Shown: one piece after another, positions 37,541 through 52,634 of the stretch
How positions within the stretch are numbered: the stretch's first letter is position 1
How the letters are laid out: the number at the start of each line of letters is the position of its first letter
Source of the DNA: a virus
IMG/VR virus record: IMGVR_UViG_3300047318_000182
Coordinates: 1-52,922 of that record
DNA: 52,922 bases
Direction: 5' to 3' (one strand)
Notes under the pieces: model-generated
What the model was told of the DNA's origin: nothing
Database searches by the model: none
The model's input: only the letters and a program-made list of their open reading frames with translations
Made by a program: the position numbers and the translations under genes

Positions 37541-37569
37541 TTTATATCACATTAAAATTTAAATGTCAA
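37541..37569 (-). promoter_or_regulatory. Strong promoter upstream of the coiled-coil gene
   Basis: On the minus strand TTGACA (37564-37569) and TATAAA (37541-37546) are 17 bases apart. The TTGACATTTAAA start matches the promoter at 29496-29524 apart from one base. The -35 overlaps the last codons of the Thg1-like gene. Confidence 0.85.
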
Positions 37570-38281
37570 TGGATAAATTCATTTCTTTAATTGCTTTCAT
37601 CATTTCACCGCCGTTAGAACGCACGATCTTACTACGTTCCAACTCCTCATTCATTTCCTTGTAAAAATAAACGCCCAACATGGCGTCGTCGCCATATTCC
37701 TTCCAGACATCGATTCCTTTTTCAAGAAGCATGGCCTTAATTTGCTGCACCGAAACACGTTGTAATTGCTTCGGGCTCCACATGCTTTGAGCCACGGACT
37801 GGTACGCATTCGTGGCGCAATCAATCATGCGAAACCGCAGAGAATCAAAAGCATCGAGCTTGTCGCAGCCATAGACACGACAATCAAAGCCATTGTAACT
37901 ACTCTCTTTGTAATGGTGAATGAGTTTATAGAACTCAATAGAGCAATAGCTGGACATTAGGCTGGACAGTTTTACCACTCTTCCTGAGTGAGGATGCTCG
38001 ACCAATGCCTTGCCGCTGCGATCCATACGAGGCTCCCAAATCAGAGTTATTTCATCTGATTGCGTATAACTATACGTAGCATTAAACTTTTTATGCAAAG
38101 CTCTGGTTGTATCCGCCATCGCTTCTCTAAGCGTGGCATCGAACGGTCTCTTTAATCCTTTAGTAAATTTCGAGAAACCATGTCCATCCAAACGGGCCAC
38201 GATATACTGATCACTTGGGATGCGAATCTCGTGTTCTGCTTCCAGCTTCTTGAGCTTATCAAATTCTTGCAAATTTTTCAT
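37559..38281 (-). CDS. Thg1-like 3'-5' nucleotidyltransferase
   Basis: A 240-residue protein starting at ATG 38281; a GTG three codons upstream is possible. It carries the Thg1 signature: RLDGHGFSKFTKG with metal ligand Asp32, and YTQSDEITLIW with Asp76. Thg1 adds a G to the 5' end of tRNA-His; Thg1-like proteins of bacteria and phages repair 5'-truncated tRNAs by templated 3'-5' addition. The phage also encodes an RNA ligase, a kinase and an RlaP-like enzyme, so tRNA repair is the likely role. It overlaps the end of the BCS1-like gene by 23 bases. Confidence 0.9.
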   Translation of the reverse strand: MKNLQEFDKLKKLEAEHEIRIPSDQYIVARLDGHGFSKFTKGLKRPFDATLREAMADTTRALHKKFNATYSYTQSDEITLIWEPRMDRSGKALVEHPHSGRVVKLSSLMSSYCSIEFYKLIHHYKESSYNGFDCRVYGCDKLDAFDSLRFRMIDCATNAYQSVAQSMWSPKQLQRVSVQQIKAMLLEKGIDVWKEYGDDAMLGVYFYKEMNEELERSKIVRSNGGEMMKAIKEMNLSIDI

Positions 38282-39521
38282 TGAGCACACTCACTACTTT
38301 TTCAATTCCGTCGTCAAAATATTGAAGAATAACATCTTGAACCACTGAGCCGGGGGTCGGTTCGTATTCCGCCGCCGTACCATTAATTTCTGTCACACCG
38401 AAGAAATACTTGACCATTCGAACGATCTCTGAAGTCTCCAACGGCATCACTTCGATCACGTCATCAAACCTTCCTTTACGGAACAGCGCAGGATCGAGAC
38501 TACCGAGATGATTAGTCGTGGCCACAAGAATAAAATTCTCAGGGCTATTGATGCCGTCTATAGCGTTCAGCAGATCAGCTAGGGAAACAATGCTGAATTT
38601 TTCTGCCGTCTTCTCTTTATCATCTTGCGTGTCGGTTGGATCGTCGCGGCGAGACGTAATGTTGTCGCAATCGATATCTTCCATAACCCCAAGATAAGCA
38701 TTTCTGTTTGGGTTTTCGTCATAGTTGTGATCATTCAGAGCCACGGCTAGGCCGGGGAGACGCGAAGGACTTACCATCACCACTGATCGATCAGTAATCG
38801 CGGCGATGTACTTGGCCAACGTGGTTTTGCCAGTACCGGGGACGCCGTGAAGAAGAATTGCGTATTTGTAGGGAATGCCGCGATCCTCGTACCACTTTCT
38901 GTTACTAAGAAAGAACTTAACTCTTTTCTCAATATGATCTAGCGTGGCAGGATCAATGAAAACGCTTTCACGTGGACGCTTGGGGATGTCCTTTAGATGC
39001 TCGACCCAATCCTTATTTAGGGTATAAACTTTAGTCTTAGCCTTGTTTACCAGCTTCTTTTCTGCAAAAAAATCTTCAAACAGTTTAATCACCGTGCTTT
39101 TCTTCTTTAGAAAAAACGTAAGCGATAGGTTCTGTTTGAATTCCTTACTATCGCTCTTTTCCTTTTCACGGCTAATTTTAACAAGTTTGCCTCTGAAATA
39201 AGACCAAGACCCGCCGAGCCCAACGCTCATAGATTCTTTGTCAAGCACGTTCTTACGGCTCAGGAGGTTAATCGTGTTCTTATTTAATTCCGTAACAATG
39301 TCTACGAAATTATTATTATCACTAAAAACATCAACCGTGATTGTGGAACGCCGATAAATGGCGTTCCACAACTTACCCGGAATGCTTTTCAGGGCGTACA
39401 TCGCGCCACTGAGAACCACAGTTCCGATACCAGCGATAAGGAAATCGTTACTCATCTGCGCCTGTAGCCACGTATGAAACTGCGATTCTGCTACAGTAGT
39501 GATCGTAGTAATATCAACCAT
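38259..39521 (-). CDS. BCS1-like AAA ATPase with N-terminal membrane segment
   Basis: A 420-residue protein. A membrane helix lies at about 27-46, followed by a BCS1_N-like region (about 55-190) and an AAA module. The approach WYEDRGIPYKYAILLHGVPG with Walker A GVPGTGKT (226-233), Walker B VMEDID (279-284), TTN sensor (335-337) and LDPALFRKGRFD (342-353) match the BCS1 subfamily. Mitochondrial BCS1 moves a folded protein across the membrane. In a phage it might remodel or translocate a protein at the inner membrane; the substrate is unknown. Its start shares a base with the stop of the HD gene. Confidence 0.88.
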   Translation of the reverse strand: MVDITTITTVAESQFHTWLQAQMSNDFLIAGIGTVVLSGAMYALKSIPGKLWNAIYRRSTITVDVFSDNNNFVDIVTELNKNTINLLSRKNVLDKESMSVGLGGSWSYFRGKLVKISREKEKSDSKEFKQNLSLTFFLKKKSTVIKLFEDFFAEKKLVNKAKTKVYTLNKDWVEHLKDIPKRPRESVFIDPATLDHIEKRVKFFLSNRKWYEDRGIPYKYAILLHGVPGTGKTTLAKYIAAITDRSVVMVSPSRLPGLAVALNDHNYDENPNRNAYLGVMEDIDCDNITSRRDDPTDTQDDKEKTAEKFSIVSLADLLNAIDGINSPENFILVATTNHLGSLDPALFRKGRFDDVIEVMPLETSEIVRMVKYFFGVTEINGTAAEYEPTPGSVVQDVILQYFDDGIEKVVSVLNEKFARI

Positions 39522-40039
39522 TAAACCAATTTCCTAAATTCTTTTAAAAACTTTTCTTTAGCTTCTTCTGGATTCCACGGATGGAACCTATCATCTACTT
39601 TTTGAATAATTGAAACGTCGATAGGATTATGCCAATTCTTAATCAATAGCGAGCCCTCAAAATCGAGGAGGAGACGGTCATAAATCTTCAAGTATTCATG
39701 ATCTTCATCTGTTGGGATACCGCCAAGGAATTTCTTGTAGATTTTATTCTGCAACCGATTTTCCATCTTTTGAAAGTCGGGAAGCTTTTCTTTAAACGGT
39801 GTAGGCATGTCAGAGCCATATGCCTCACTGCCGTCGTGTAGGAGGCCATACATCTTCAGCTTTTCCATGAAGCGACTGACATAGACACTGTGCTGGGCCA
39901 CGGAGAAATAAGAAGAACAATGACCGGCCCATCGGCAGTTATTAGAGAGGGCGTGAGCTATGTCAACAATGTCAAAGTCGTCTTCGGTATAACGGTCAAC
40001 GAAAAAATTAATACCAGTAAACGTTGTAATATAACTCAT
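39521..40039 (-). CDS. HD-domain phosphohydrolase
   Basis: A 172-residue protein with the HD ligands: His in SVAQHSVYVS, His-Asp in YGLLHDGSEAYGSD, and a late Asp. The early CRWAGH supports the phage/bacterial HD family related to YfbR-type 5'-deoxynucleotidases. It would release deoxynucleosides from monophosphates, but phage members have not been well defined. It is translationally coupled to the BCS1-like gene. Confidence 0.78.
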   Translation of the reverse strand: MSYITTFTGINFFVDRYTEDDFDIVDIAHALSNNCRWAGHCSSYFSVAQHSVYVSRFMEKLKMYGLLHDGSEAYGSDMPTPFKEKLPDFQKMENRLQNKIYKKFLGGIPTDEDHEYLKIYDRLLLDFEGSLLIKNWHNPIDVSIIQKVDDRFHPWNPEEAKEKFLKEFRKLV

Positions 40040-40072
40040 TTATTAATTCTCAATTTTTCTGATTTACTAATT

Positions 40073-40399
40073 TCACATAAAGCTCTGAAAGATATAACCA
40101 ACACCGAGAGCGATAATAGGCATGGTGTAAGTGAAAACTAAAGAGCCCTTCAATTTTCCGATTTTTGTGGCTGGCTCCTCATCTTCCTCTTGGTCCTTTG
40201 GAAGATATTTTGCCATCATAAATCCTTTGATCAGCATAATTCCCATGGCGTGAACCAGTCCGATGGCTGGTACGCCGAGCGGGACAATGAACCAGAGCCA
40301 GAGGCAAAGAAGTGTATAAGCATTAAGAAACACGCCAATTGGGACTGTAATGAGCGAGATAATAACGAGTGCGGTTAGTGCTTTAAGGTCTTTTTCCAT
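40073..40399 (-). CDS. Multi-pass membrane protein
   Basis: A 108-residue protein with about three hydrophobic segments (ALVIISLITVPIGVFLNAY, LWLWFIVPLGVPAIGLVHA and a C-terminal FTYTMPIIALGVGYIF), with an acidic loop between the second and third (PKDQEEDEE). No family is recognised. It could alter the host membrane or exclude other phages; holin function cannot be excluded but its early-block location argues against it. Confidence 0.7.
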   Translation of the reverse strand: MEKDLKALTALVIISLITVPIGVFLNAYTLLCLWLWFIVPLGVPAIGLVHAMGIMLIKGFMMAKYLPKDQEEDEEPATKIGKLKGSLVFTYTMPIIALGVGYIFQSFM

Positions 40400-40420
40400 T
40401 ATAATTTCCTATTTATTTAT

Positions 40421-41020
40421 TTATAATTTACGTTCTGAAATTTCTTCCACGATAGGGCAGGCGTCTTTCCAGTGGCGACGGCATACCGATTCGTAGCTAC
40501 TATCGCCTACTTCAACCACGTCTGAAGTGATTACAGGCTCACCGTTCTCATTTCGTCTCAGGATTTGAGTGGCTTTAGATCCACAATGGCACACAGTTTT
40601 AATTTCTTTGATTTGATCACTTAGGGCTAACAGCCTGATAATCGCTGGACCGAAGAGTTCACCATTACTATTATTTTTTAATCCAAATGTCAATACCGGA
40701 ATCTTAAAATAATCAACAATGTCTGCTAATTCCTCAACCTGTTTGTCGGTAAAGAATTGAATCTCGTCCACAAAGATTACTGACTTGTCCCAGTCAAACA
40801 TGCTTAAGTGTTTGACAAAGTAATCATCAGGACTGAGGGCAATAGCTTCGCGCCTCAAGCCGACCCGAGATGAAACAAAACCTACGCCGCCGCGATCATC
40901 TGTGGCTGAAGTGAATAGGTAGACTTTCCACCCATTAGATTCATAATTGTGAGCACTTTGAAGTAGATAAGTAGATTTACCAGCGTTCATGACGCTGTAG
41001 AAAAAATGAAGTTTAGCCAT
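40421..41020 (-). CDS. tdk: Thymidine kinase
   Basis: A 199-residue type II thymidine kinase. Walker A is SVMNAGKST (9-17), Walker B is VIFVDEIQFF, and LTFGLKNN and a Cys-x-Cys (CHCGSKA) with a later Cys (ESVCRRHW) form the lasso and Zn site. It salvages thymidine to dTMP, complementing ThyX. It overlaps the 69-residue gene upstream by 8 bases. Confidence 0.95.
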   Translation of the reverse strand: MAKLHFFYSVMNAGKSTYLLQSAHNYESNGWKVYLFTSATDDRGGVGFVSSRVGLRREAIALSPDDYFVKHLSMFDWDKSVIFVDEIQFFTDKQVEELADIVDYFKIPVLTFGLKNNSNGELFGPAIIRLLALSDQIKEIKTVCHCGSKATQILRRNENGEPVITSDVVEVGDSSYESVCRRHWKDACPIVEEISERKL

Positions 41021-41222
41021 TGTTAATTTCTACGAAAATTTCTAACCACAGAATTTTATACCAACGTGAACCGCCGTCCAAGAAAGAATCCCAATCAGTG
41101 AGAGGAAACAGCCTCTTACGCCATTGGTAAATTGGGCGTTGATATTTATCAGAAGTATAAGATTTCCACATTACTTTGAAGAAAGCAGGGACGCCGCCAT
41201 AAGATTTCTTTCTAAAAATCAT
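41013..41222 (-). CDS. Small hypothetical protein
   Basis: A 69-residue basic, aromatic-rich protein (FFKVMWKSYTSDKYQRPIYQ, WYKILWLEIFVEI). It overlaps both neighbours by 8-11 bases. Function unknown. Confidence 0.55.
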   Translation of the reverse strand: MIFRKKSYGGVPAFFKVMWKSYTSDKYQRPIYQWRKRLFPLTDWDSFLDGGSRWYKILWLEIFVEINNG

Positions 41223-41424
41223 TTGGATTACTCACGTCGCCATATTCAAAGGAAATTTTTAAAACTTCTTTTAAAAATGCCTTCAAATTATTTTCACTAT
41301 CATAACTTCGATATTCATATGTCTCACCCTCATAGTGAAACACAGAAACTGTGTCATAATTATCACAACAGCCATCGCCACATTGCCAATAATCTTCGTA
41401 TTCTTCTACCTTAATGCTAGACAT
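41212..41424 (-). CDS. Small hypothetical protein
   Basis: A 70-residue acidic protein with a Cys/Asp-rich start (YEDYWQCGDGCCDNYDTVSV) that could bind metal, and a hydrophobic helix (NLKAFLKEVLKISFEYG). It overlaps both neighbours. Function unknown. Confidence 0.55.
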   Translation of the reverse strand: MSSIKVEEYEDYWQCGDGCCDNYDTVSVFHYEGETYEYRSYDSENNLKAFLKEVLKISFEYGDVSNPNDF

Positions 41425-41686
41425 TTAAATACTCCCTTAAATCATCTGGAAAGCGTGACACAACCGGATCAAATTCTTCACCACGAACAAACGTATCGCC
41501 AACTTTATAACAGTAACCGTATCGACCGTCGCCATCTAATGTGACGACGGCGTGAAGGTTTCGGCCCTGATCGATCCACTCAAAACTAAGTTCTAAATAA
41601 TCTTCGTCCCACCAAATCTCTGGCTTCCATTCGATTTCGATCAGGTTCCAGAGAAATGTTTCTTTGTCTTGATCTAGCGTGGTCAT
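41417..41686 (-). CDS. Small hypothetical acidic protein
   Basis: An 89-residue Trp- and acid-rich protein (WNLIEIEWKPEIWWDEDYLE). It looks like a small beta-domain. It starts right after the stop of the RlaP-like gene and overlaps the next by 8 bases. Function unknown. Confidence 0.6.
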   Translation of the reverse strand: MTTLDQDKETFLWNLIEIEWKPEIWWDEDYLELSFEWIDQGRNLHAVVTLDGDGRYGYCYKVGDTFVRGEEFDPVVSRFPDDLREYLNV

Positions 41687-42685
41687 TTAAGCAAAATATT
41701 CATTTTTGATCTGTTTGAGGTGTAGATCATGAGCGACTTGATCCATAAAATTAGTATCTACCTTCTCAGGTAAATCGGATTTGGTCATGAGCACTTCAAG
41801 CTTATCTAGATTGTCTTCCAGCATTCTCGCTATATCTTTGTAATCGTGCTCACCACGCTTGATAGTCAAAAGCTCTTGAGCGTTCCAGCGGGGGAAAGTG
41901 ATCACACCGTCCTGAAGAAGCTCCATGGCTTGCTCTGAGACGCGAATCGCGTGATACAAGGCTTTCCAGTCCACGCCTTCGTTCTTTTCCGCCGCAAGAG
42001 CCCTTGAACCGAATTCATCGAAGGCTCTCTTATAGATAGAATGAGCTTCCTTGAGCGCGATGGTGTAGCCAACTTTACGGTTTACTACTTCTAGGTAGTT
42101 AACCATTTCCGTGCTGCCCTTAGCCACAGGAAGTTGAATCACCTCGGCGTGTTCGTTGAGTTCACAGAAACACTCAAAAAAGTGCTCGAAATCGGGAACG
42201 TCTTTGATCTTTGTGTTTGCCCCGTACTGTTCGATCCAGAACGCGAACATTTCAGTTGCATTGCGAGCCGCAGCGACACGCGATCCTCGTATACCATATT
42301 TGTTTGCTTGTTGCCTACAGTAGCCTACAAAGCCTTTAACATCTCTAGCAACGAGGCGATTTTTGTTAGGGAGGATAATGTTTTCCCACTCTGGCGACAT
42401 GACAAGAGCCTGTTCAACAGACACATGTAGTAGTTCTTGAGCCACCATGTCGCCCTTCTTCAGCATAGCAAAGAATTTTAGAAGGGAAAAACTCTCATCA
42501 TCAACATCATCCGCAGTATTTTTGACTTTATCACTGCCAGTTGAATTTGAAATGACGCGATCCGCGTTCTGCATCACTAGAGAACGGGCCGAAGGAATAT
42601 GCACGCCTTTGTAGTCCGTATCGCTCGTAGGAGTTTTTGTTCCGTAAAGTGAACTCCCAAATTCAAGTTTAATTAATTGTTTCAC
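41687..42685 (-). CDS. RlaP-like nucleotidyltransferase (RNA-repair DNA polymerase beta family)
   Basis: A 332-residue protein starting at a GTG with AAAGGGTGG 7 bases upstream; an ATG 12 codons further up (42721) is the alternative. It carries the polymerase-beta nucleotidyltransferase motif FGSSLYGT followed by SDTDYKG, in the pattern of RlaP (PF10127), a family tied to RNA-repair operons. The C-terminal half is helical (KEAHSIYKRAFDEFG). It may add or process nucleotides on damaged RNA, acting with the phage ligase and kinase. The start region was split by the GIY-YIG insertion and rebuilt by a duplicated 28-bp segment. Confidence 0.78.
   Translation of the reverse strand: MKQLIKLEFGSSLYGTKTPTSDTDYKGVHIPSARSLVMQNADRVISNSTGSDKVKNTADDVDDESFSLLKFFAMLKKGDMVAQELLHVSVEQALVMSPEWENIILPNKNRLVARDVKGFVGYCRQQANKYGIRGSRVAAARNATEMFAFWIEQYGANTKIKDVPDFEHFFECFCELNEHAEVIQLPVAKGSTEMVNYLEVVNRKVGYTIALKEAHSIYKRAFDEFGSRALAAEKNEGVDWKALYHAIRVSEQAMELLQDGVITFPRWNAQELLTIKRGEHDYKDIARMLEDNLDKLEVLMTKSDLPEKVDTNFMDQVAHDLHLKQIKNEYFA
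42657..42684. repeat. 28-bp direct repeat, 3' copy
   Basis: These bases match 43409-43436 in 27 of 28 positions. On the minus strand this copy encodes KQLIKLEFG of the RlaP-like gene in one frame and the last residues (ETIN) of the GIY-YIG protein in another. Confidence 0.95.
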
Positions 42686-43418
42686 CGAGTTTCCACCCTT
42701 TATGATTACTAGCTCTTCCATTAACTACGTGATACATACAATTAACGGATAAATTATTTATTTTACAAAATTCACTCAGATTAGTTACTACCAATAATTT
42801 GCCGTAAGGAGAAATTAAATTATAAGTTTTGCCTTCTCTAAGATATACTCTTCCGGGGTAAGTTCTTCCTAGAAGAGCTTTTCTAACTTTATCTACATGT
42901 TCAGGAGCTTTTGGGATTCCTTTTAAGGCTTTACTAATTTTTTCACCTACATTAGGATGAGGCCCCCGTGCTTTAGTCCGCTTTGAGTTTGCCTCGTTTT
43001 GCGCAGAGGTTCTCTTTTTACCTTTATTTCCTTTAGAAATCTTTTCACGCCACTCGTCAGTTCTAGGTGCGGCAAATCCCGGCGATCCACCACCTCCTGT
43101 AGTTTGATTTACTAGCAGACCACCAGCTTTCTTCATCCCATACATTTCAAGAATGAACCAAGTTTCCCAATCATAAGCCTCTTGATTTGTCATCCCATCT
43201 TTTAGTATGAGATATTTATCTTCATATCCCTTTGATCTATAAAGATTGATAATGTTAGATTTATGGTTATTCTGTTTTAAGTAGCCGGGTGTGTAATGAT
43301 CCTTAACTCTTTTTCCCTTACCTTTACCGATGTAAAAAGGTTCATCGTTTTTCAAAGGGTTGAGTAATAAATACACATAATATGAATTGTCTAGCAAACG
43401 TCTAATTACCAAAATCAA
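42669..43418 (-). CDS. GIY-YIG homing endonuclease with NUMOD3 and IENR1-like DNA-binding parts
   Basis: A 249-residue protein read from TTG at 43418; a stop in frame just upstream leaves no earlier start and no ATG precedes the domain. The GIY-YIG core is YYVYLLL...FYIGKGKGKR (13-37). NUMOD3-like repeats follow (WREKISKGNKGKKRT and VGEKISKALKGIPKAPEH), then an IENR1/NUMOD1-like end (FCKINNLSVNCMYHVVNGR). It would make a break at its target for homing. It fills almost the whole 752-bp insertion and its last codons lie in the repeat carrying the RlaP-like start. Confidence 0.88.
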   Translation of the reverse strand: MILVIRRLLDNSYYVYLLLNPLKNDEPFYIGKGKGKRVKDHYTPGYLKQNNHKSNIINLYRSKGYEDKYLILKDGMTNQEAYDWETWFILEMYGMKKAGGLLVNQTTGGGGSPGFAAPRTDEWREKISKGNKGKKRTSAQNEANSKRTKARGPHPNVGEKISKALKGIPKAPEHVDKVRKALLGRTYPGRVYLREGKTYNLISPYGKLLVVTNLSEFCKINNLSVNCMYHVVNGRASNHKGWKLGETIN

Positions 43419-43437
43419 GTTTAATTAATTGTTTCAT
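43402..43437 (-). pseudogene. Severed 5' end of the RlaP-like gene
   Basis: ATG then KQLIKLDFGN and a stop: this is the first stretch of the RlaP-like gene (KQLIKLEFGS) left upstream of the GIY-YIG insertion. Its ATG overlaps the stop of the upstream gene (TAATG), which was the original coupled start. It now encodes only 11 residues and may serve as a leader for the endonuclease's TTG. Confidence 0.8.
43409..43436. repeat. 28-bp direct repeat, 5' copy
   Basis: Matches 42657-42684 in 27 of 28 positions. The copies are 752 bp apart and flank the GIY-YIG gene; this one belongs to the original start of the RlaP-like gene. Confidence 0.95.
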
Positions 43438-43640
43438 TAATCTTCCCAAACAACCTCAAAATGATGTACATTTTCTCTAGGAATATAAACCTTATTCGGT
43501 TTACCTCTACCATCTTCTACATAAATTTCGAGATTTGCGCCGCTAAAATCAAACCAAGAGATATTCTTGTATTCAATGCTACCAAAATTGGTGTCCTTGA
43601 AGGTCACATAAGCATTCCTAGTTCTTGTATCTATTGCCAT
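43437..43640 (-). CDS. Small hypothetical protein
   Basis: A 67-residue beta-rich protein (VTFKDTNFGSIEYKNISWFD, LEIYVEDGRGKPNKVYI). Its stop overlaps the remnant start of the RlaP-like gene and its start shares a base with the stop of the upstream gene. Function unknown. Confidence 0.6.
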   Translation of the reverse strand: MAIDTRTRNAYVTFKDTNFGSIEYKNISWFDFSGANLEIYVEDGRGKPNKVYIPRENVHHFEVVWED

Positions 43641-43894
43641 TAATATTCTTCCATAACTCTGAATAAAGTGTTAATTGGATATTTATCTATGAAGGTCTTG
43701 GTTTTGGTAGATTCCGTAGACATGTTGAATTGTTTGGGGATTTGAACTCCATCGTAATACCAAACCATTGGTACGGTTTCTTGGACCTCTACTGTGTATT
43801 GTACACAAAAGAACGAACCTTTTTCGTAACTGGAAATCGCGTTCTGGTAGACCTTTGGAGAATTCATCTTATCTGTTTGAACTGTAATTTTCAT
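43640..43894 (-). CDS. Small hypothetical protein
   Basis: An 84-residue protein with strands rich in Val and Tyr (FFCVQYTVEVQETVPMVWYY) and a Lys/Thr-rich segment. It overlaps the upstream gene by 26 bases and is coupled to the next one. Function unknown. Confidence 0.6.
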   Translation of the reverse strand: MKITVQTDKMNSPKVYQNAISSYEKGSFFCVQYTVEVQETVPMVWYYDGVQIPKQFNMSTESTKTKTFIDKYPINTLFRVMEEY

Positions 43895-44051: not shown

Positions 44052-44069
44052 TTTGTCAATATCTAAATC

Positions 44070-44099
44070 ACTATATGAGGTAAATAAATTTGGAATCAA
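44070..44099 (-). promoter_or_regulatory. Putative promoter after the solute-binding gene
   Basis: On the minus strand TTGATT (44094-44099) and TATAGT (44070-44075) are 18 bases apart, just after the terminator. It would restart transcription for the small genes leading to the RlaP-like gene. Confidence 0.5.
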
Positions 44100-44126
44100 A
44101 AGAGGGCTCAATGAAGAGCCCTCTTT
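44099..44126 (-). terminator. Terminator of the TAXI solute-binding gene
   Basis: AAAGAGGGCTC and GAGCCCTCTTT form a perfect 11-bp stem with a 6-base loop, 30 bases after the stop of the gene. A short T-run follows on the minus strand. Confidence 0.8.
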
Positions 44127-44155: not shown

Positions 44156-45061
44156 TCAATTGAGCTTCTTTTCGGCGCGGACAATATCACCAACACCTAG
44201 AACAGCGTCACCTAGCTCACCATAAGCCTCAATATTGTTTGACTTCCAAGAACTTGAAACGAGGAACTTGGCCAGCACGCCGATGGTTTCAAGATCAGCG
44301 TTGCCCCACATCGCGCCATCCGGCATGATCTTGCCATAAGAATTAGCGGCGAGAGTGGTAGGATTCCAAACTGAGCTTTCCGTCCCGCTCTTATCCTTAT
44401 AAGTCACGTCATTAAAATCCTTATCCTGAACCGGAACAAGTTCCAGTGTTGCGTTACGCTTTTCAGCGCTTTCCATCAGAGCGTTACCGGGACTACCGAC
44501 GTAAACCATGCACTGAGCCCGATTTCCTTCAGTTAGATCAACCAGCGCAGTCTTATTATCTTCATTGATAATAGCTAAACCATCGTAATCGTTTCCACCA
44601 TATTCCTTGTCAGCCTTGATGAGGCCGCGAATAGTAGAATCTGCACCGCCGCCCTTTGTCCCAGCGAAGACCGAATTACCCTTCTTCAGATCGGAGAAAG
44701 ATTCGACTCCACTTTCCTTGTTACAAAGGAGGTGAACATACTCGGTGTAAAGAGTGGAAATGGAATTGGCGTCGATGGAACCAGCACCCCAAATCGTATC
44801 AGACTGTGCCAGTCCAGCGTCACAAGTACCATTGGCGATCAGCTTGAGATTTTCTTCGCCGCCATTGGTGGAGACGAGTTGCACATCGATAACGCCGCGA
44901 AGCTGGCGCTGAGTCGTTAGACCAACGAATTCATAATTACCACCCTTTGCTCCGGTGCAGAGCTTGAGGACAGGAAGTGCAGCACCTTGAGCCATGACAG
45001 GAGCGGCAAATGCCATACCAGAAATGGCAATAACAGCGGCGAGCATAGTATTCTTAATCAT
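44156..45061 (-). CDS. TAXI-family periplasmic solute-binding protein
   Basis: A 301-residue protein with a Sec signal peptide (about 1-24, a basic start, a hydrophobic core and cleavage after VMA). The mature part matches TAXI-type TRAP transporter binding proteins: LCTGAKGGNYEFVG near the start, LVSTNGGEENLKLIANGTCD and AGLAQSDTIWG, then MVYVGSPGNALME and a late SYGKIMPDGAMW. Such proteins bind small carboxylates for a membrane TRAP transporter; no transporter subunits are in the window, so it would use host parts or act as a decoy. It has its own promoter, a strong AAAGGAG site and its own terminator, as a moron does. Confidence 0.88.
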   Translation of the reverse strand: MIKNTMLAAVIAISGMAFAAPVMAQGAALPVLKLCTGAKGGNYEFVGLTTQRQLRGVIDVQLVSTNGGEENLKLIANGTCDAGLAQSDTIWGAGSIDANSISTLYTEYVHLLCNKESGVESFSDLKKGNSVFAGTKGGGADSTIRGLIKADKEYGGNDYDGLAIINEDNKTALVDLTEGNRAQCMVYVGSPGNALMESAEKRNATLELVPVQDKDFNDVTYKDKSGTESSVWNPTTLAANSYGKIMPDGAMWGNADLETIGVLAKFLVSSSWKSNNIEAYGELGDAVLGVGDIVRAEKKLN

Positions 45062-47411: not shown

Positions 47412-47412
47412 G

Positions 47413-47646
47413 TTAAACTTCAGTATAAACCATTTCTATTTCTTCACCACGTTTTGTCGCGGCAATGACAGCGTTTATAATAGCTTCGCAATCGTGAGGA
47501 CTTGTTAAATCTCTATAAAATAAAACATCTTCAGGTTCTATGCCTTCTGATTGGGACATAAAAGTCTTACCGTCAACTTTAACTCTATGAGTTTCCCACG
47601 TGTCCCAAGAGCCTTTGCTTATTTCAGTCTCAAATTCTATCTTCAT
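47413..47646 (-). CDS. Small hypothetical protein
   Basis: A 77-residue acidic protein with a beta-rich start (IEFETEISKGSWDTWETHRV) and a helix (PHDCEAIINAVIAATKRGEE). One base separates it from the SNF2 helicase start. Function unknown. Confidence 0.6.
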   Translation of the reverse strand: MKIEFETEISKGSWDTWETHRVKVDGKTFMSQSEGIEPEDVLFYRDLTSPHDCEAIINAVIAATKRGEEIEMVYTEV

Positions 47647-47669
47647 TAGCTAGCCACCTAGTAAATATT

Positions 47670-47825
47670 TTAATCGACGTGCTTTGTCTTAATAAATTCA
47701 ATGACTTCCAAAGACTCACTCAATTTAGCTAACGCCACGGCATAATCGCCCGCCCTCGTAGCCGTGTCAGCCTCTCGGTGAAGTTTATTTATTTTATAAT
47801 TATTGAGGTATGTAATGTTAGTCAT
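47670..47825 (-). CDS. Small helical protein
   Basis: A 51-residue protein starting MTNITYLNNYKINKLHREAD; this ATG has AAGGTG 5 bases upstream and lies in the stop region of the aminoacyl-tRNA-synthetase-like gene. A longer in-frame start would run far into that gene. It forms two helices (ATRAGDYAVALAKLSESLEV). Function unknown. Confidence 0.55.
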   Translation of the reverse strand: MTNITYLNNYKINKLHREADTATRAGDYAVALAKLSESLEVIEFIKTKHVD

Positions 47826-48360
47826 GTCGCACCTTACTAAATCTTGGTAGCGCCAGTCCTGTGCCACAGGTCCAACTATGGTCCCTAAACTTACGGTAGC
47901 TATAACTACCAATTTCTACACCATTTATTTCTAGATCGAAGCCAGTACTTTGCTGAGACAGGTCAAGTATTTTTCCAGTCTTTGTTCTGAAAAATTTACG
48001 AGCCACACCCATTAAAGAGGCAACGGCATATTCGCCCCAAATGAAAAGTTCGACTTTCATGAAATATTTTTGATGAAAACGATCTAGCTCGTATTCGTTG
48101 CGGAAACAGGGAGTGCAAGTCACGAAAGGAACGTTTGTCTCTAATTTCCCTGCAATCCCCATCTGGATCAGAGATTGTTCCGCCGAGCCGACGAGAAGAC
48201 CGTCTTCAAAAGGATACGCCTTATCTGGACTAGGGCAAGTAATATTTGATACCTCTGTCATGACGTGCCACGGAACTGTGATTTCTGTGAAACCAACGGA
48301 TTTATAAAAATTCATAGCTTCTGAGATCAACTGCCAGTCAATTCTATCATCGTCTTCCAC
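47818..48360 (-). CDS. Minimal class II aminoacyl-tRNA-synthetase-like protein
   Basis: A 180-residue protein read from a GTG. It has class II core motifs: motif 2 as PCFRNE (Phe86-Arg87-x-Glu89) leading into YFMKVELFIWGE, and motif 3 as CGTGLALPR ending in Arg173, which would hold ATP. EINGVEIGSYSYR resembles segments before motif 3 in class II enzymes. There is no anticodon-binding or editing domain. It may be a paralogue that activates an amino acid or adenylates a substrate without tRNA, or it may help RNA repair. Identity of the substrate is unknown. Confidence 0.72.
   Translation of the reverse strand: MEDDDRIDWQLISEAMNFYKSVGFTEITVPWHVMTEVSNITCPSPDKAYPFEDGLLVGSAEQSLIQMGIAGKLETNVPFVTCTPCFRNEYELDRFHQKYFMKVELFIWGEYAVASLMGVARKFFRTKTGKILDLSQQSTGFDLEINGVEIGSYSYRKFRDHSWTCGTGLALPRFSKVRHD
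48347..48359. repeat. 13-bp direct repeat at the 3' junction of the 70-residue gene
   Basis: On the minus strand TGGAAGACGATGA, identical to 48546-48558. It spans the stop of the 70-residue gene and the GTG start of the synthetase-like gene. Confidence 0.85.
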
Positions 48361-48559
48361 TAACTAACCCTTCCTTATTTATACTATATTTAGGAATTCT
48401 AGTACATTCAAGATCAGCCAATAGTTCTAGATATCCTTTAATCTCCGCTTGATATCTCCTTTCAAGCTCCCGAATCCTGCTGATGTATAATTCCTTGAGT
48501 TTTTCATAATCTTCGTTATATTCATAATCATAATATATGAAACCGTCATCGTCTTCCAT
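48347..48559 (-). CDS. Small acidic hypothetical protein flanked by direct repeats
   Basis: A 70-residue protein starting MEDDDGFIYYDYEYNEDYEK, very acidic and Tyr-rich at the start, then coiled-coil (YISRIRELERRYQAEIKGYL). It ends SGRR, as the upstream gene ends NGRR, and the downstream gene also starts MEDDD. Both junctions carry the same 13 bases, so this gene may have been inserted by duplication of the junction. Function unknown. Confidence 0.6.
   Translation of the reverse strand: MEDDDGFIYYDYEYNEDYEKLKELYISRIRELERRYQAEIKGYLELLADLECTRIPKYSINKEGLVSGRR
48546..48558. repeat. 13-bp direct repeat at the 5' junction of the 70-residue gene
   Basis: Identical to 48347-48359; it spans the stop of the MazG-like gene and the ATG of the 70-residue gene. 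Confidence 0.85.
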
Positions 48560-48803
48560 TATCAAAAGCTCTTTTCGTAATGATCGCCATTGTTTCTAGG
48601 TCATACAGATCGATGCTTGGATGATGACGTTCGAGATAATGTTTCACCGCGCCTATAAGATCGGCCAGTTCAACCAGTCCCATGATCTTGCATTCTTGCT
48701 TTTCCGCGTCTTGAAGCTCAAGAAGCTCTTCCATAATTTTCGAAGATTCACCAAGAACGCCTTTCTCAATCATAGCGAGGTGGTATCCGGGTTTATCAGT
48801 CAT
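48546..48803 (-). CDS. Second MazG-like protein
   Basis: An 85-residue protein starting MTDKPGYHLAMIEKGVLGE; upstream in-frame ATGs up to 48824 are possible, but this one fits the overlap with the preceding stop. It has the MazG-like helices KIMEELLELQDAE and VELADLIGAVKHYLE, where the Glu and Asp are expected metal ligands. It is the single-domain type of all-alpha NTP pyrophosphatase. A second, larger MazG-like gene is at 21482-22012. Confidence 0.68.
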   Translation of the reverse strand: MTDKPGYHLAMIEKGVLGESSKIMEELLELQDAEKQECKIMGLVELADLIGAVKHYLERHHPSIDLYDLETMAIITKRAFDNGRR

Positions 48804-49152
48804 GAGGCTCATCTTTACTGACATTAGAAACCCACTCTACCGGAACAACTTCCACCAGTTGGTACATTCCGTGATGCGATTGATAACTATCAATTGCTTC
48901 TTTTTCGCTATCGTAATTGTTGGCGTCAAAGAATAGCGTACCGTCCGACACATCACGCGATACTGTTAGCCAAGTCCTTACCACTGTGTCTTTGGTAAAC
49001 ATATCGAGAAAATCTGATTTGTCATGAATAGATACGGAGCCGTCGTCAAATTTAAACACAACTTCATCAAAGGTGGAAACATAAACTACTTCCACCTCAC
49101 CTCCGTAAGAACCATAATATACGTCACCGACTTGAATTTTCACATCTGACAT
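48796..49152 (-). CDS. Hypothetical beta-rich protein
   Basis: A 118-residue protein. The start (VKIQVGDVYYGSYGGEVEVV) looks like a small SH3-like beta-barrel; the second half (TLFFDANNYDSEKEAIDSYQ) is different in nature. It starts directly upstream of the MazG-like gene and right after the RNA ligase stop. Function unknown. Confidence 0.6.
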   Translation of the reverse strand: MSDVKIQVGDVYYGSYGGEVEVVYVSTFDEVVFKFDDGSVSIHDKSDFLDMFTKDTVVRTWLTVSRDVSDGTLFFDANNYDSEKEAIDSYQSHHGMYQLVEVVPVEWVSNVSKDEPHD

Positions 49153-50136
49153 TTATAACGCCTTTTCAATTTCTAGTAAGAACCATTCTCTTGCATACTG
49201 GTTAACTGCTTTAGATACTTGCTTCCATTCCAGACCAGAAGCCTCTAATTCATTCACTGATTCTTTCTTGACATCGGCTCCGAGCCAAGCCATGAAAGGT
49301 CCAATGTTTTTAGTCGCGGCTACGCCGTCACAAGCCTCTGTTACGCCCTGACTACACCGAGCCTCAGTCACAAACTGAATCGCAAATGCTGTAGCCCCTT
49401 CAAGAACGGCTGGATCGATTTCAATCTTAGCCTTATCACCCTTAGTTCCGGCGTGGCTCTCCCCTTTTGCCTTGAACAAATAATTACTGTAATCAGTGAA
49501 CGGCATTTCATCAACAAACGGAGTGAATACGAACCCTTCGCCAATGCCTTCAATGCCGTAGCGATCCTTGACATAAGGGTCAACTTTATCACAAGCCTCA
49601 ACCCATGCCCCGATCTGTTTCATCGCAGCTTCCATAGAAGATTGAAGTCGGAAGTCAATTTCAACCGTAGCATCTAAGTGCCAAGGAATGATTTCAAAAG
49701 GCAGAATATTAGTGCCTAGCCAAGTCACAATCCTAGTGGGATCAACAGCGATATAGCCAGTTTCTAGATTGAGCATAGCGAAAACAAAAAATGTCTTCTT
49801 CTCAATCAGTGAAACAGCTGCCTTTTTCTGGATACCGGGACCGGCCCATTCACCAAAAAGAACATAATTGAAACCAATTACCGGGATTTCAGTTTTAATT
49901 GTTTCTACGTGACGGGCGAATCCAGCGTTATCACTCTCAATGGTGCAAATATCTGATCGCTTACCACAGGTAATTAATCCATCACTATCGACACGAATCG
50001 AAGCGTTAGTGCCATGGAGCTTACATTTACCACGGTATAAAACCTTTGGGCGGTTCTCAACATCAAAATGTCGCTTTACATGAGCGTTAACGTCACTAAA
50101 TTTTTCAATACTTGGAAACTTTACGAATTTGGTCAT
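49153..50136 (-). CDS. RNA ligase, Rnl2-type
   Basis: A 327-residue ATP-dependent RNA ligase. Motif I is KLHGTNASIRV with nucleotidyl Lys39, motif III area is LFGEWAGPGIQKK, motif IV is GEGFVF and motif V is YLFKAKGE. It would seal 3'-OH/5'-phosphate ends in RNA, as T4 Rnl2 does at nicks in duplex RNA. With the PNK-like kinase and HAD phosphatase nearby, it can complete repair of cut tRNA. It overlaps the preceding gene by 32 bases. Confidence 0.92.
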   Translation of the reverse strand: MTKFVKFPSIEKFSDVNAHVKRHFDVENRPKVLYRGKCKLHGTNASIRVDSDGLITCGKRSDICTIESDNAGFARHVETIKTEIPVIGFNYVLFGEWAGPGIQKKAAVSLIEKKTFFVFAMLNLETGYIAVDPTRIVTWLGTNILPFEIIPWHLDATVEIDFRLQSSMEAAMKQIGAWVEACDKVDPYVKDRYGIEGIGEGFVFTPFVDEMPFTDYSNYLFKAKGESHAGTKGDKAKIEIDPAVLEGATAFAIQFVTEARCSQGVTEACDGVAATKNIGPFMAWLGADVKKESVNELEASGLEWKQVSKAVNQYAREWFLLEIEKAL

Positions 50137-50602
50137 TATCTTCTAAACTCTCAAAAAATCTTCTAATTTCGGCTTCACCCCGTTGTCGCCATGTTTCGCC
50201 AATTTGTTTAATTATTCTTTCTTGGACATATTTTGTAGGACTGCCCATCAAATGCCTAGTATCAATCTCAAATTCTCCGCGCAGAGGTTCCAATTTGATT
50301 CTGAACCGTTCGACCGGAGCAACTAGAAGTGAATATTCTTCGTAGCTATATTTCATCACACCGGACGGAAAGGGCATTATGGACTCGGTGGACCCAAAAT
50401 GATATTCTTCAAATTCTTCCAGATGTCGATAAGACTCATGGAGGGCGTAGGTCTGATTAAAAAATTGCTTCTTTAAAATATCGTAGGTATGCTGACGAAC
50501 AAAAGGCCAAACAATATCAGCGCCTCGATTTAAATGATTTGATAGCCAAATCCCGAACGGTGTTACCAGTTCGGGATCAGTTTTAAAGATTGTGCAAGTC
50601 AT
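50105..50602 (-). CDS. Hypothetical protein
   Basis: A 165-residue protein starting MTCTIFKTDPELVTPFG. It has aromatic and acidic segments (HESYRHLEEFEEYHFGS) and a C-terminal basic helix (QRGEAEIRRFFESLED). It overlaps the RNA ligase by 32 bases and the HAD gene by 20. It is not recognised; its position suggests a link to the RNA-repair genes. Confidence 0.6.
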   Translation of the reverse strand: MTCTIFKTDPELVTPFGIWLSNHLNRGADIVWPFVRQHTYDILKKQFFNQTYALHESYRHLEEFEEYHFGSTESIMPFPSGVMKYSYEEYSLLVAPVERFRIKLEPLRGEFEIDTRHLMGSPTKYVQERIIKQIGETWRQRGEAEIRRFFESLEDNDQIRKVSKY

Positions 50603-50915
50603 TGGCGTGCCTTAGTTTTATTTCTTGAACCTGCTCTTCTACAAATCCTGTATCGATATAAAAAGGATCATTATCGATCCAGATATCTATACTAATACCC
50701 TGTTCTTCACACACTTTTCTTTTGGCTCGCCAAGTACAATAAATGATTGGAACATGCATAGCGACAAAATCTTGAACTAATTCAATAGGAGTATCCATGC
50801 CTCGTGACGTGACTAGATAGACGTTATGATCCGCGAGTTGCATCTGTGGGATCAGTTTACGCCACATTTCAATCGCTGCGGTATAGGTTCCGTCGTAGTC
50901 AATCATGATATTCAT
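50583..50915 (-). CDS. HAD-superfamily phosphatase
   Basis: A 110-residue protein with the HAD motif I DYDGTYT (Asp6 and Asp8), motif II in YLVTSRG, and motif IV-like DIWIDNDPFYI. It is small, with no cap domain. In T4 the 3'-phosphatase of polynucleotide kinase is a HAD domain fused to the kinase; here a kinase-like protein lies 1.2 kb upstream as a separate gene, so this could be the partner phosphatase. Other substrates are possible. Confidence 0.72.
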   Translation of the reverse strand: MNIMIDYDGTYTAAIEMWRKLIPQMQLADHNVYLVTSRGMDTPIELVQDFVAMHVPIIYCTWRAKRKVCEEQGISIDIWIDNDPFYIDTGFVEEQVQEIKLRHANDLHNL

Positions 50916-51091
50916 TTAATGGATTTTTCTTCTTGATACGTGATGCAAAATTCTTCTATTACTTTTTTGAATAAAACAGTGGCGGCGTGGTGAGAAATTT
51001 GACCGTTATGAAGTCGCGCCGCGACAACATTACCTTTTCGAAGCAGTTCAAAATATTTTTGAAGCTCCCCGTAATCAATGTTGGATTTCAT
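50912..51091 (-). CDS. Small hypothetical protein (59 residues)
   Basis: A frame beginning MKSNIDYGELQKYFELLRKG and ending YQEEKSIK fills the gap between the HslV-like and HAD genes. Its start overlaps the upstream stop (TAATG) and its stop overlaps the HAD start (ATGA), so its ends fit the operon exactly. It is helical and basic (VVAARLHNGQISHHAATVLF). Function unknown. Confidence 0.65.
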   Translation of the reverse strand: MKSNIDYGELQKYFELLRKGNVVAARLHNGQISHHAATVLFKKVIEEFCITYQEEKSIK

Positions 51092-51582
51092 TAGTCTTCA
51101 AAGCTCACGATCTGAACCGCACCGCCGCTGCCATTGTCGTGATGAATCGCGGCACGAACAGCTTGTTCCGCCGAAGCTCCGTGATACAACGCTCCATAAG
51201 CAATATCAGCGCCGGAGCCCATGGCGTAATAATCACCGCCGATGTTATGCGATAGTCTGGCACCGCCTCCATAATATTGAATATCGTACCCGCCGTCTTC
51301 AGTCTTTTCAATCGTTAAGATTGAGCATTCTAAATCGTTGTTTGGTTCGCGGCCACCTTCAAAAATATAATCTAAATATTCTTGAATATCTGGGACTGAT
51401 CCTGCCGCGCCTACTAGATATTCTTTTCGTTCAATTGGTTTATGAAGTAGTCTATCAACTAAACTTTGACTCTCTTCCATTGTGACTTTAAATACTTTTT
51501 TAAAATTCCCCGCATAAACACCGCCAAAACTCATTTTTGAATCAGACGCAAGAATCCCGTCACGAAATACAATGGTAGTCAA
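51091..51582 (-). CDS. HslV/proteasome-beta-like Ntn hydrolase
   Basis: A 163-residue protein starting MTTIVFRDGILASDSK. Removal of Met exposes Thr as in HslV (TTIV), with Asp14 (ASDSK) and Lys near GNFKKVF as catalytic partners. LVGAAGSVPDIQEYLDYIF and YAMGSGADIAYGALYHGASA match the HslV/20S core. It may form a ring protease, perhaps with a host unfoldase, or act alone in turnover or head maturation. No phage AAA unfoldase is beside it. Confidence 0.8.
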   Translation of the reverse strand: MTTIVFRDGILASDSKMSFGGVYAGNFKKVFKVTMEESQSLVDRLLHKPIERKEYLVGAAGSVPDIQEYLDYIFEGGREPNNDLECSILTIEKTEDGGYDIQYYGGGARLSHNIGGDYYAMGSGADIAYGALYHGASAEQAVRAAIHHDNGSGGAVQIVSFED

Positions 51583-51583
51583 A

Positions 51584-52111
51584 TTATTCTCCGATTTTCA
51601 TTTTGTTATAATTTTTGATTTCTTCGAACGTAGCTGGGGCAAAATTAAAGTTGTCTACACCTACATCCACTCGGTTTTTAACAATTGGTACTTGTTTAGT
51701 CACGTTCCCATGAACGTGACTGTGCAACATCCATGCTCCTCTAAAATACCCGTTCCATTCCGCGATTGGGTAATGGCAGAGTGTGATTTTTTCGTTATTT
51801 AATTCAATCTCCTGATAGAGGAATGTATCTTCCCAACCATCGGCTGTAATAGTTTTCTGATGGTCATGATTTCCAATGATGAGGAATTTTTTGCCATTTA
51901 ATTGTTTAAGATAGAAATCCGCATCGACTGATGACTTATAGTTGAAATCTCCTAGATGAAATACTACGTCAGAAGTAGTTACTCTGGCGTTCCAATTTTT
52001 GATCAGAGTTTCATCATGCTCTTTCAAGGAAGAAAAGGGTCTCCCATGGCCAAGAGTAAGGATTTTTAAATGGCCGAGATGGGTACATCCAGTGAAAAAT
52101 ACATTTGCCAT
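51584..52111 (-). CDS. Calcineurin-like phosphoesterase
   Basis: A 175-residue single-domain metallophosphoesterase. The motif order is FTGCTHLGH (start), FHLGDFNYK, IIGNHDHQK, LCHYPIAEWNG and HSHVHGN. In the first motif the usual Asp of D-x-H is Cys in this protein (GCTH). It may act on cyclic phosphate or phosphodiester ends in RNA repair, but the substrate is not known. It sits 1 base from both neighbours. Confidence 0.82.
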   Translation of the reverse strand: MANVFFTGCTHLGHLKILTLGHGRPFSSLKEHDETLIKNWNARVTTSDVVFHLGDFNYKSSVDADFYLKQLNGKKFLIIGNHDHQKTITADGWEDTFLYQEIELNNEKITLCHYPIAEWNGYFRGAWMLHSHVHGNVTKQVPIVKNRVDVGVDNFNFAPATFEEIKNYNKMKIGE

Positions 52112-52112
52112 T

Positions 52113-52634
52113 TCAATTACTTACCATTAAATTTTCGAAATACTTAAGGAAAGATTCCGGAGTATGAATCCATGAGAATCCCTCAGATAATCGTGGAGAT
52201 TCAAAACAATCTTGCATACTTCCTAGGACATTATGGGGAATTAACTTACCCTCAACTTCAGCCCGTTTATCTAAACGATTGTACCAATCATTAGGAATTG
52301 GAAAATATACGCATACTTTATCATAATCCTTGAATTTGTCAAGGATTATTTTGCGTTTCTTCACAGTTAAATTAGTTTGATCCCAAACAACGTTCGCGCC
52401 AAGCATTTTAGCTGCTTTCGCATCTGCCTCAATCGCTACGTTTGCCGGTCCAACGGCTTTGTCAAACACTTCGGTGTAGGTTTTACCTTGTAATCTAGCT
52501 TCATGGTCAATGTAATCATCAGAACTAATGGCCATGAAAGAAAAACCGTTCCTTAGCCTCAAAGCTTCTCGGAACGTAGATTTACCTGTCGCCGGGAAGC
52601 CAACCAAAACTATCAAAAGAGGTTTCGTTGTCAT
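52113..52634 (-). CDS. Polynucleotide 5'-kinase-like P-loop protein
   Basis: A 173-residue kinase starting MTTKPLLIVLVGFPATGKST; this ATG has GGAA about 8 bases upstream, and a longer in-frame start exists at 52664. Walker A is GFPATGKST (12-20), followed by ISSDDYID, DQTNLTVKKRK and RAEVEGKLIPHNVLGSM, in the order of the T4 Pnkp kinase domain. It would phosphorylate 5'-OH RNA ends made by anticodon nucleases. The phosphatase half of T4 Pnkp is absent, but a HAD gene is nearby. Confidence 0.78.
   Translation of the reverse strand: MTTKPLLIVLVGFPATGKSTFREALRLRNGFSFMAISSDDYIDHEARLQGKTYTEVFDKAVGPANVAIEADAKAAKMLGANVVWDQTNLTVKKRKIILDKFKDYDKVCVYFPIPNDWYNRLDKRAEVEGKLIPHNVLGSMQDCFESPRLSEGFSWIHTPESFLKYFENLMVSN

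What the first reader, a model, noticed from the sequence alone, without database searches (positions are those of the whole stretch)
37559..52634. Dispersed phage RNA-repair toolkit including Thg1-like, RlaP-like, ligase, kinase and phosphatase genes
Within 15 kb the phage encodes a Thg1-like polymerase, an RlaP-like nucleotidyltransferase, an Rnl2-type RNA ligase, a PNK-like 5'-kinase, a HAD phosphatase, a calcineurin-like phosphoesterase and a minimal class II synthetase-like protein. Motifs for each are visible in the sequence. T4 is known to repair host-cleaved tRNA with Pnkp and an RNA ligase, and RlaP is a family linked to RNA repair. The inference is that this phage can both rebuild lost nucleotides (Thg1-like, RlaP-like) and reseal RNA, against anticodon nucleases or similar host defences. 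This combination is broader than the T4 pair.
Basis: partly seen in the sequence, partly recalled or inferred. Interest (0 to 1): 0.85.

Follow-up and report, generated by a model that had tools for sequence, protein, structure and literature searches.

The report
Phage RNA-repair gene set, partly clustered
This stretch of a large, probably alphaproteobacteria-infecting phage encodes enzymes that would trim, refill and re-join broken tRNAs; it is a well-stocked example of a counter-defence toolkit already predicted for big phages, and its last pieces probably lie just past the end of the sequenced fragment.

Summary
Profiles confirm a Thg1-like 3'-5' polymerase (37559-38290), an RlaP nucleotidyltransferase (41687-42721), a T4-Rnl2-type RNA ligase (49153-50136) and a PNK-type kinase (52113-52664). 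A small calcineurin-like phosphoesterase (51584-52111) is real. The HAD gene (50583-50915) shows HAD motifs but fits no characterised phosphatase family. The "synthetase" (47818-48360) is a minimal class II core closest to SerRS/PylRS, not HisRS, and belongs to a different gene module.

"Dispersed" is only half true. Kinase-phosphoesterase-HslV and HAD-50105-Rnl2 form two tightly packed blocks in 3.6 kb. Relatives (185 kb, 120 kb, 119.6 kb, 45 kb) keep these genes and carry, just upstream of the kinase where this window ends, a T4-type Rnl1 and (three of four) a separate PNKP-type HAD 3'-phosphatase. So the window holds most of a split-gene T4 Pnkp/Rnl1 system plus Rnl2, RlaP and Thg1.

The repair interpretation is supported but not new: it was published for jumbo phages (PMC7824862), and T4 itself carries an RlaP homologue. 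Thg1 and RlaP show co-presence only, never consistent adjacency, with the ligases. Activity and the nuclease countered are untested.

The parts
52113..52664 (-). PNK-type P-loop kinase (start probably 52634); predicted RNA 5'-OH kinase
   Evidence: AAA_33 3.5e-14 and phrog_505 6e-8. Profile A3 best PDB matches: Pnkp1 of the Pnkp1-Rnl-Hen1 complex 7e-11, PSTK 9e-11, mammalian PNKP 3e-8, 'Metallophosphoesterase' 4gp7 (clostridial Pnkp kinase domain, from memory) 4e-7, T4 PNK 1.6e-6. Next to Rnl1 in 6 of 11 panel records that have both.
51584..52111 (-). Small calcineurin-like metallophosphoesterase (phrog_547), 1 bp from the kinase gene
   Evidence: phrog_547 2e-43; 72% identical in G004 and G005, adjacent to the kinase there. 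Kinase/MPE genes overlap in distant phage G028; MPE-kinase fusion of 359 aa in G038.
51091..51582 (-). HslV-like Ntn-hydrolase/proteasome-type protein, 1 bp from the MPE gene; role unknown
   Evidence: phrog_1040 1.2e-28. Within 2 kb of the kinase in all 5 panel records that have both; Rnl1-kinase-'proteasome beta' is contiguous in Ruegeria phage RpAliso.
50583..50915 (-). Small HAD-like protein, phosphatase function uncertain
   Evidence: DxDGT...K...DNDP motifs by eye; only phrog_4919/4256 (unknown function), no PF25109. Directly upstream of Rnl2 in G005; dN/dS 0.06.
50105..50602 (-). Unknown protein overlapping HAD and Rnl2 genes
   Evidence: No Pfam/PHROG match; 41% identical in G004, absent from G005.
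49153..50136 (-). Rnl2-family RNA ligase
   Evidence: PF09414 3.6e-9, phrog_548 3e-46; only PDB matches are T4 RNA ligase 2, 6e-7; motifs I, IIIa, IV and V readable.
41687..42721 (-). RlaP family nucleotidyltransferase (start probably GTG at 42685)
   Evidence: PF10127 3.4e-11, phrog_388 3e-79; GS...G..SDTDY and a third acidic cluster invariant; predicted fold matches minimal nucleotidyltransferases HalB 4e-4 and KNT 9e-3.
37559..38290 (-). Thg1-like protein (TLP) 3'-5' polymerase
   Evidence: PF04446 3.2e-27, phrog_4717 5e-46; R33/D35 and D79/E80 invariant; profile closest to bacterial Thg1-like protein 4kgk, 1e-55, versus human Thg1 3e-20.
47818..48360 (-). Minimal class II aminoacyl-tRNA-synthetase-like protein; probably not part of the repair set
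   Evidence: Profile best matches SerRS 2.6e-6; AF2 model pLDDT 94.7; Foldseek best PylRS 4e-11, then SerRS; absent as a block with neighbours in G005.

Best explanation
The region encodes most of a T4-type tRNA healing-and-sealing system in split-gene form, extended by two enzymes that put nucleotides back. Proposed order of action: a host anticodon nuclease cuts a tRNA, leaving a 2',3'-cyclic phosphate and a 5'-OH. The metallophosphoesterase next to the kinase, and/or a PNKP-type HAD that relatives encode just outside the matching interval, clears the 3' end, and the kinase phosphorylates the 5' end. RlaP adds back a nucleotide lost at the 3' side of the break (for example after a RloC-type cut that removes the wobble base). 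The Thg1-like protein rebuilds 5'-truncated ends by templated 3'-5' addition. Rnl1 (expected just outside the fragment) reseals anticodon-loop breaks and Rnl2 reseals breaks in duplex regions. Beneficiaries would be host tRNAs and the phage's own tRNA array, seen in the 185-kb relative. Shown here: family membership, conserved catalytic residues, purifying selection, synteny, kinase-Rnl1, kinase-MPE and kinase-HslV adjacency, MPE-kinase fusions elsewhere. Inferred: every enzymatic activity in this phage, the order of steps, the targets, the anti-nuclease purpose, and that RlaP and the TLP work with the ligases.
For: Family assignments and motifs. The same genes, order and strand in G005 and G004, with Rnl1 2.2-2.7 kb upstream of the kinase. 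PF09511 plus T4_Rnl1_C, and HAD_PNKP PF25109 (3e-38), in G005, both also in G042, G043 and roseophages DSS3_MAL1 and RpAliso. Kinase-Rnl1 within 2 kb in 6/11 records (expected 0.35), kinase-MPE 4/9 (0.34), kinase-HslV 5/5 (0.28), Rnl2-MPE 5/14 (0.49). MPE-kinase fusion of 359 aa and kinase-phosphoesterase fusion of 454 aa in other phages. dN/dS 0.06-0.32. 15 tRNAs in G005. Cultured phage DSS3_MAL1 carries Rnl1, kinase, Rnl2, RlaP, MPE, HAD_PNKP and Thg1, plus a CCA-adding enzyme. RloC removes the wobble base and was proposed to defeat simple T4 repair (PMC2610378).
Against: No biochemical or infection data. Thg1 and RlaP are not preferentially near the ligase, kinase or each other (0-1 of 9-18 records, as expected by chance), so their link is co-presence in big genomes. 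The region also holds nucleotide-metabolism genes (TK, YfbR-like, NTP-PPase-like), most of them equally conserved. The kinase is about as close to seryl-tRNA(Sec) kinase as to PNK by profile. The MPE's nearest solved relative is an uncharacterised protein, aq_1665.
Confidence: 0.6

Rival explanations
1. There is no single pathway. Large phages collect nucleotide-handling enzymes, and synteny here only reflects shared ancestry of the early gene region. The ligase/kinase/phosphatase blocks may do repair, but Thg1, RlaP, the HAD and the synthetase-like gene have separate jobs.
For: Non-repair neighbours (A1, AAA, YfbR, TK, SNF2) are conserved just as well. Thg1 and RlaP show no adjacency to repair genes.
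Against: The kinase blocks are clearly non-random. RlaP co-distributes with RNA ligases in a published survey of jumbo phages (PMC7824862). In DSS3_MAL1 the MPE lies beside Thg1.
Confidence: 0.25
2. Thg1 here is a tRNA-His maturation enzyme that adds a -1 nucleotide to a phage tRNA-His that lacks it, rather than a repair enzyme.
For: The tRNA-His of relative G005 has U at -1 and U73, so no encoded G-1. Four of seven Thg1-positive records with a tRNA-His in hand lack an encoded G-1.
Against: Three Thg1-positive records encode a normal G-1:C73, and one Thg1-negative fragment lacks it, so there is no association (small sample, read by eye). The profile is closest to a bacterial TLP, and characterised bacterial and archaeal TLPs prefer repair of 5'-truncated tRNAs to G-1 addition (PMC6471195). 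Several alphaproteobacterial groups do without G-1 (same review).
Confidence: 0.12
3. The kinase, phosphoesterase, HAD and HslV proteins act on free nucleotides or signalling nucleotides (nucleotide salvage or counter-signalling), not RNA ends.
For: Proximity of TK, YfbR-like 5'-nucleotidase and NTP-PPase-like genes; MPE superfamily members hydrolyse many phosphodiesters and small HADs are often nucleotidases (general knowledge).
Against: The kinase family sits beside Rnl1 in six records and matches RNA-repair Pnkp1 best; MPE-kinase fusion; HAD lies directly upstream of Rnl2 in G005.
Confidence: 0.13

Closest known systems
T4 Pnkp-Rnl1 tRNA healing and sealing (with Rnl2)
   Same: PNK-type kinase, Rnl2, and (in syntenic relatives) Rnl1 with T4_Rnl1_C and PNKP-type HAD phosphatase; T4 also has an RlaP homologue.
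   Different: Kinase and HAD_PNKP are separate genes; an MPE and HslV-like gene sit next to the kinase; Thg1-like protein added. Rnl1 and HAD_PNKP are not inside this window.
Jumbo-phage RNA-repair complement described by Iyer et al. 2021 (PMC7824862)
   Same: Rnl2, Rnl1, PNK, HAD, calcineurin-like phosphatase, RlaP and sporadic Thg1 in one phage, with the same proposed purpose.
   Different: The nearest long relative is 185 kb, just under jumbo size; synteny, MPE-kinase coupling and the HslV-like neighbour are not mentioned in the passages read.
Roseophages DSS3_MAL1 and RpAliso (149 kb, cultured)
   Same: Rnl1-kinase-HslV contiguous, Rnl2 near the SNF2-type helicase, RlaP, separate HAD_PNKP; MAL1 also MPE and Thg1.
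   Different: Genes are spread over a larger part of the genome; in MAL1 the MPE lies beside Thg1 rather than the kinase; MAL1 has a CCA-adding enzyme.
Bacterial Pnkp/Hen1 RNA-repair system
   Same: PNK-type kinase coupled to a metallophosphoesterase and a ligase (architecture of bacterial Pnkp from general knowledge); the kinase profile's best solved match is Pnkp1 of this system.
   Different: Separate genes here; the MPE belongs to another subfamily (nearest 1xm7); no Hen1 recognised.
Bacterial Thg1-like proteins (BtTLP)
   Same: Closest solved relative of the phage Thg1 profile (1e-55); catalytic Asp/Glu conserved.
   Different: About 30% identity to other phage Thg1-like proteins; shorter C terminus, shared with G002-G005.

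Membership tests
Thg1/TLP 3'-5' polymerase family | PF04446 domain above curated cut-off | tested here: met
   95.5 bits vs 29.2
Thg1/TLP 3'-5' polymerase family | Metal-binding D...DE carboxylates conserved | tested here: met
   D35, D79, E80 invariant
Thg1/TLP 3'-5' polymerase family | TLP (repair-type) rather than eukaryotic Thg1 | tested here: met
   Profile of six phage proteins: bacterial TLP 1e-55 vs human Thg1 3e-20; similarity only, no tree made
Thg1/TLP 3'-5' polymerase family | 3'-5' nucleotide addition activity | not testable with these tools
   needs enzyme assay
RlaP | PF10127 above cut-off with nucleotidyltransferase motif and fold | tested here: met
   43.8 bits vs 23; GS..G...SDTD invariant; Foldseek HalB/KNT (model pLDDT 78, only moderate)
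RlaP | Genomic association with RNA ligases | tested here: inconclusive
   Present in 16 panel records with Rnl2, but within 2 kb in only 1
Rnl2 RNA ligase | PF09414, KxHG lysine and motifs IIIa, IV, V | tested here: met
   37.4 bits vs 27; only solved matches T4 Rnl2
T4-type Pnkp-Rnl1 pathway | PNK-type 5'-kinase | tested here: met
T4-type Pnkp-Rnl1 pathway | Rnl1 ligase | tested here: inconclusive
   None in the window; present at the syntenic place in G005, G042, G043, G004, which corresponds to beyond the window end
T4-type Pnkp-Rnl1 pathway | PNKP-type HAD 3'-phosphatase | tested here: inconclusive
   Small HAD in the window is not PF25109; a separate PF25109-type gene exists in G005, G042, G043
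PNKP HAD phosphatase (PF25109), for the HAD at 50583-50915 | Match to PF25109 | tested here: not met
   no Pfam family at E<=1
Histidyl-tRNA synthetase (PHROG name of 47818-48360) | HisRS closest among synthetases, anticodon-binding domain | tested here: not met
   PDB profile best SerRS, fold best PylRS/SerRS, 180 aa with catalytic core only
Bacterial Pnkp/Hen1 system | Fused kinase-phosphatase-ligase Pnkp | tested here: not met
   Kinase and MPE are separate genes and no ligase is fused to them
Bacterial Pnkp/Hen1 system | Hen1 methyltransferase partner | not tested
   No profile search for Hen1 was made

The most novel reading that the evidence does not exclude
Alphaproteobacterial phages carry a modular tRNA-rescue operon in which a stand-alone PNK-type kinase works with a metallophosphoesterase (genetically fused in other phages) and a proteasome-like Ntn hydrolase, backed by RlaP and a TLP that can restore nucleotides removed by RloC-type nucleases. 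The HslV-like protein would add a proteolytic or peptide-clearing step to RNA repair, which I did not find described in the papers read.
Probability: 0.2. Interest if true: 0.7.

Novelty: new member of a known kind. Interest (0 to 1): 0.42.

Why it matters
If RlaP and the Thg1-like protein really restore lost nucleotides, the phage could undo lesions such as the RloC wobble-base excision that was proposed to defeat T4-style repair (PMC2610378). The compact kinase-phosphoesterase-HslV and HAD-Rnl2 blocks, together with cultured relatives such as DSS3_MAL1, make a predicted but untested pathway directly testable. They also flag the HslV-like gene as an unexpected partner worth assaying.

Tried and rejected
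HisRS-Thg1 as a tRNA-His charging pair: rejected as main reading because the protein is SerRS/PylRS-like, sits in a separate module and is absent from G005, which keeps Thg1 and encodes a tRNA-His.

Thg1 associated with tRNA-His lacking G-1: no association in the small sample.

MPE as the clostridial-Pnkp-type phosphatase: its nearest solved relative is a different MPE, aq_1665, so only a functional analogy remains.

CCA-adding enzyme in close relatives: none in G005, G042, G043. Phage tRNAs in the window: none; Rfam: none.

A single-protein locus search for the synthetase found only one near-identical contig; the alignment-based search reached 64. Burroughs and Aravind 2016 (PMC5062991) is not held, so its content is known here only through PMC7824862 and memory. 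Promoter scans and covariance models were not used.


Full report
WHAT IS THERE. The window is a 52.9-kb virus record with no tRNA or Rfam RNA. All genes in the claimed stretch run on the minus strand. Profiles confirm Thg1, RlaP, Rnl2 and a PNK-like kinase, and support a small calcineurin-like phosphoesterase (PHROG; below the Pfam cut-off). The small HAD is a HAD by its motifs only. The synthetase-like protein is real, but its PHROG name 'histidyl tRNA synthetase' is not upheld: a family profile matches SerRS best, and a high-confidence AlphaFold model (pLDDT 94.7) matches PylRS and then SerRS catalytic cores.

LAYOUT. Kinase (52664-52113), phosphoesterase (52111-51584) and HslV-like gene (51582-51091) are 1 bp apart. 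HAD (50915-50583), an unknown protein (50602-50105) and Rnl2 (50136-49153) overlap one another. These look like two co-transcribed blocks in 3.6 kb. RlaP (41.7 kb) and Thg1 (37.6 kb) are separated from them by a SNF2 helicase, an NMT1-like protein, a GIY-YIG endonuclease, thymidine kinase, a YfbR-like phosphatase and an AAA protein.

RELATIVES. Several viral contigs share the region at 75-81% identity in the neighbouring T5-A1-like gene. G005 (184,940 bp) and G004 (44,792 bp) keep Thg1, RlaP, Rnl2, HAD, HslV, phosphoesterase and kinase in the same order and strand. G005 lacks the synthetase-like gene together with its two neighbours (48347-48824), while phage XM05 keeps the synthetase-like gene and the NTPPase-like gene at matching spacing. 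So that gene belongs to a separate module.

WHAT PROBABLY LIES BEYOND THE WINDOW END. In G005 an Rnl1 with a T4_Rnl1_C domain lies about 2 kb upstream of the kinase, and a PNKP-type HAD phosphatase (PF25109, 3e-38) about 5.5 kb upstream. Both are also in G042, G043, DSS3_MAL1 and RpAliso; Rnl1 is cut by the contig end in G004. G005 also encodes 15 tRNAs. The complete system in relatives is thus T4 Pnkp split into two genes, plus Rnl1, Rnl2, RlaP and Thg1, with a tRNA array in G005. That this phage has the same is an inference from synteny.

IS THE CLUSTERING MORE THAN CHANCE. Using profile matches in a panel of 49 records and random placement of one gene, kinase-Rnl1 lie within 2 kb in 6 of 11 records (expected 0.35), kinase-phosphoesterase in 4 of 9 (0.34), kinase-HslV in 5 of 5 (0.28) and Rnl2-phosphoesterase in 5 of 14 (0.49). 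After collapsing the window's clade, kinase-Rnl1 (6/10), kinase-phosphoesterase (2/7, p about 0.01) and Rnl2-phosphoesterase (3/12, p about 0.005) remain. Thg1 and RlaP show no such adjacency. The panel was chosen by A1 and Thg1 searches plus named phages, related records were counted separately, the hit table was transcribed by hand, and contigs may be incomplete, so these numbers are indicative. Independent support: one 318-kb phage overlaps kinase and phosphoesterase genes, another encodes a 359-aa phosphoesterase-kinase fusion, and a third a 454-aa kinase-phosphoesterase fusion.

SELECTION. Between the closest relatives, dN/dS is 0.06 (Thg1), 0.10 (RlaP), 0.15 (Rnl2), 0.08 (phosphoesterase), 0.06 (HAD), 0.11 (HslV) and 0.32 (kinase, the fastest). 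The genes are under purifying selection, but not conserved beyond their neighbours.

THG1. Its profile is closest to a bacterial Thg1-like protein, 4kgk. Bacterial and archaeal TLPs prefer templated repair of 5'-truncated tRNAs (PMC6471195). Such templated addition suits stems and 5' ends, so I infer that Thg1 and RlaP repair different lesions and that RlaP, not Thg1, is the better candidate for a missing anticodon-loop nucleotide. A tRNA-His maturation role is not excluded: G005's tRNA-His has no encoded G-1, but across the eleven tRNA-His genes at hand Thg1 and absence of G-1 are not associated.

KNOWN OR NEW. Iyer et al. 2021 describe the same set with the same purpose in jumbo phages, including RlaP mirroring ligases, sporadic Thg1, and calcineurin-like or HAD phosphatases (PMC7824862). 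Iyer et al. 2010 linked Thg1 to polynucleotide kinase and RNA ligase in bacterial gene neighbourhoods (PMC2904730). T4 itself has an RlaP homologue between nrdC.9 and mobD.2. The cultured roseophage DSS3_MAL1 has a broader set. The window is therefore a good new member of a known kind. The details not found in the papers read are the kinase-phosphoesterase coupling with fusions and the HslV-like neighbour.

HOST. The nearest named relatives infect Sphingobium, Erythrobacter, Caulobacter, Agrobacterium and roseobacters, so an alphaproteobacterial host is likely but inferred.

Noticed in passing
51091-51582; L015:12486-13001; L003:19829-20305: HslV-like Ntn hydrolase sits beside the RNA kinase in all five panel records that have both, including two cultured roseophages. 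A proteasome-like partner of RNA repair is unexplained.
   Followed up: partly
L262:15013-15088 (G005): Phage tRNA-His with U at -1 and U73; other Thg1-positive phages have tRNA-His with A73 or G73 and no G-1, odd for HisRS recognition.
   Followed up: partly
47818-48824; L004:28735-29807: Conserved arrangement of an NTP-pyrophosphohydrolase-like gene, a small unknown and a 180-aa SerRS/PylRS-like minimal class II synthetase core; the latter is widespread in large phages (272 records), function unknown.
   Followed up: partly
44156-45061: Phage-encoded NMT1/TAXI-like periplasmic binding protein with an apparent signal peptide, conserved but fast-diverging (43-44% identity) in relatives.
   Followed up: no
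42669-43418: GIY-YIG/NUMOD3-like homing endonuclease immediately upstream of, and slightly overlapping, RlaP; absent at this place in relatives.
   Followed up: no
29805-32525: Family A DNA polymerase with an N-terminal DUF4326 domain.
   Followed up: no
L188:3806-4885 (G038); L189:4011-5375 (G035): Phosphoesterase-kinase and kinase-phosphoesterase fusion proteins in other Thg1-carrying phages.
   Followed up: yes
52113-52664: The kinase evolves fastest of the toolkit (dN/dS 0.32 between G042 and G043), compatible with an arms race or relaxed constraint.
   Followed up: no
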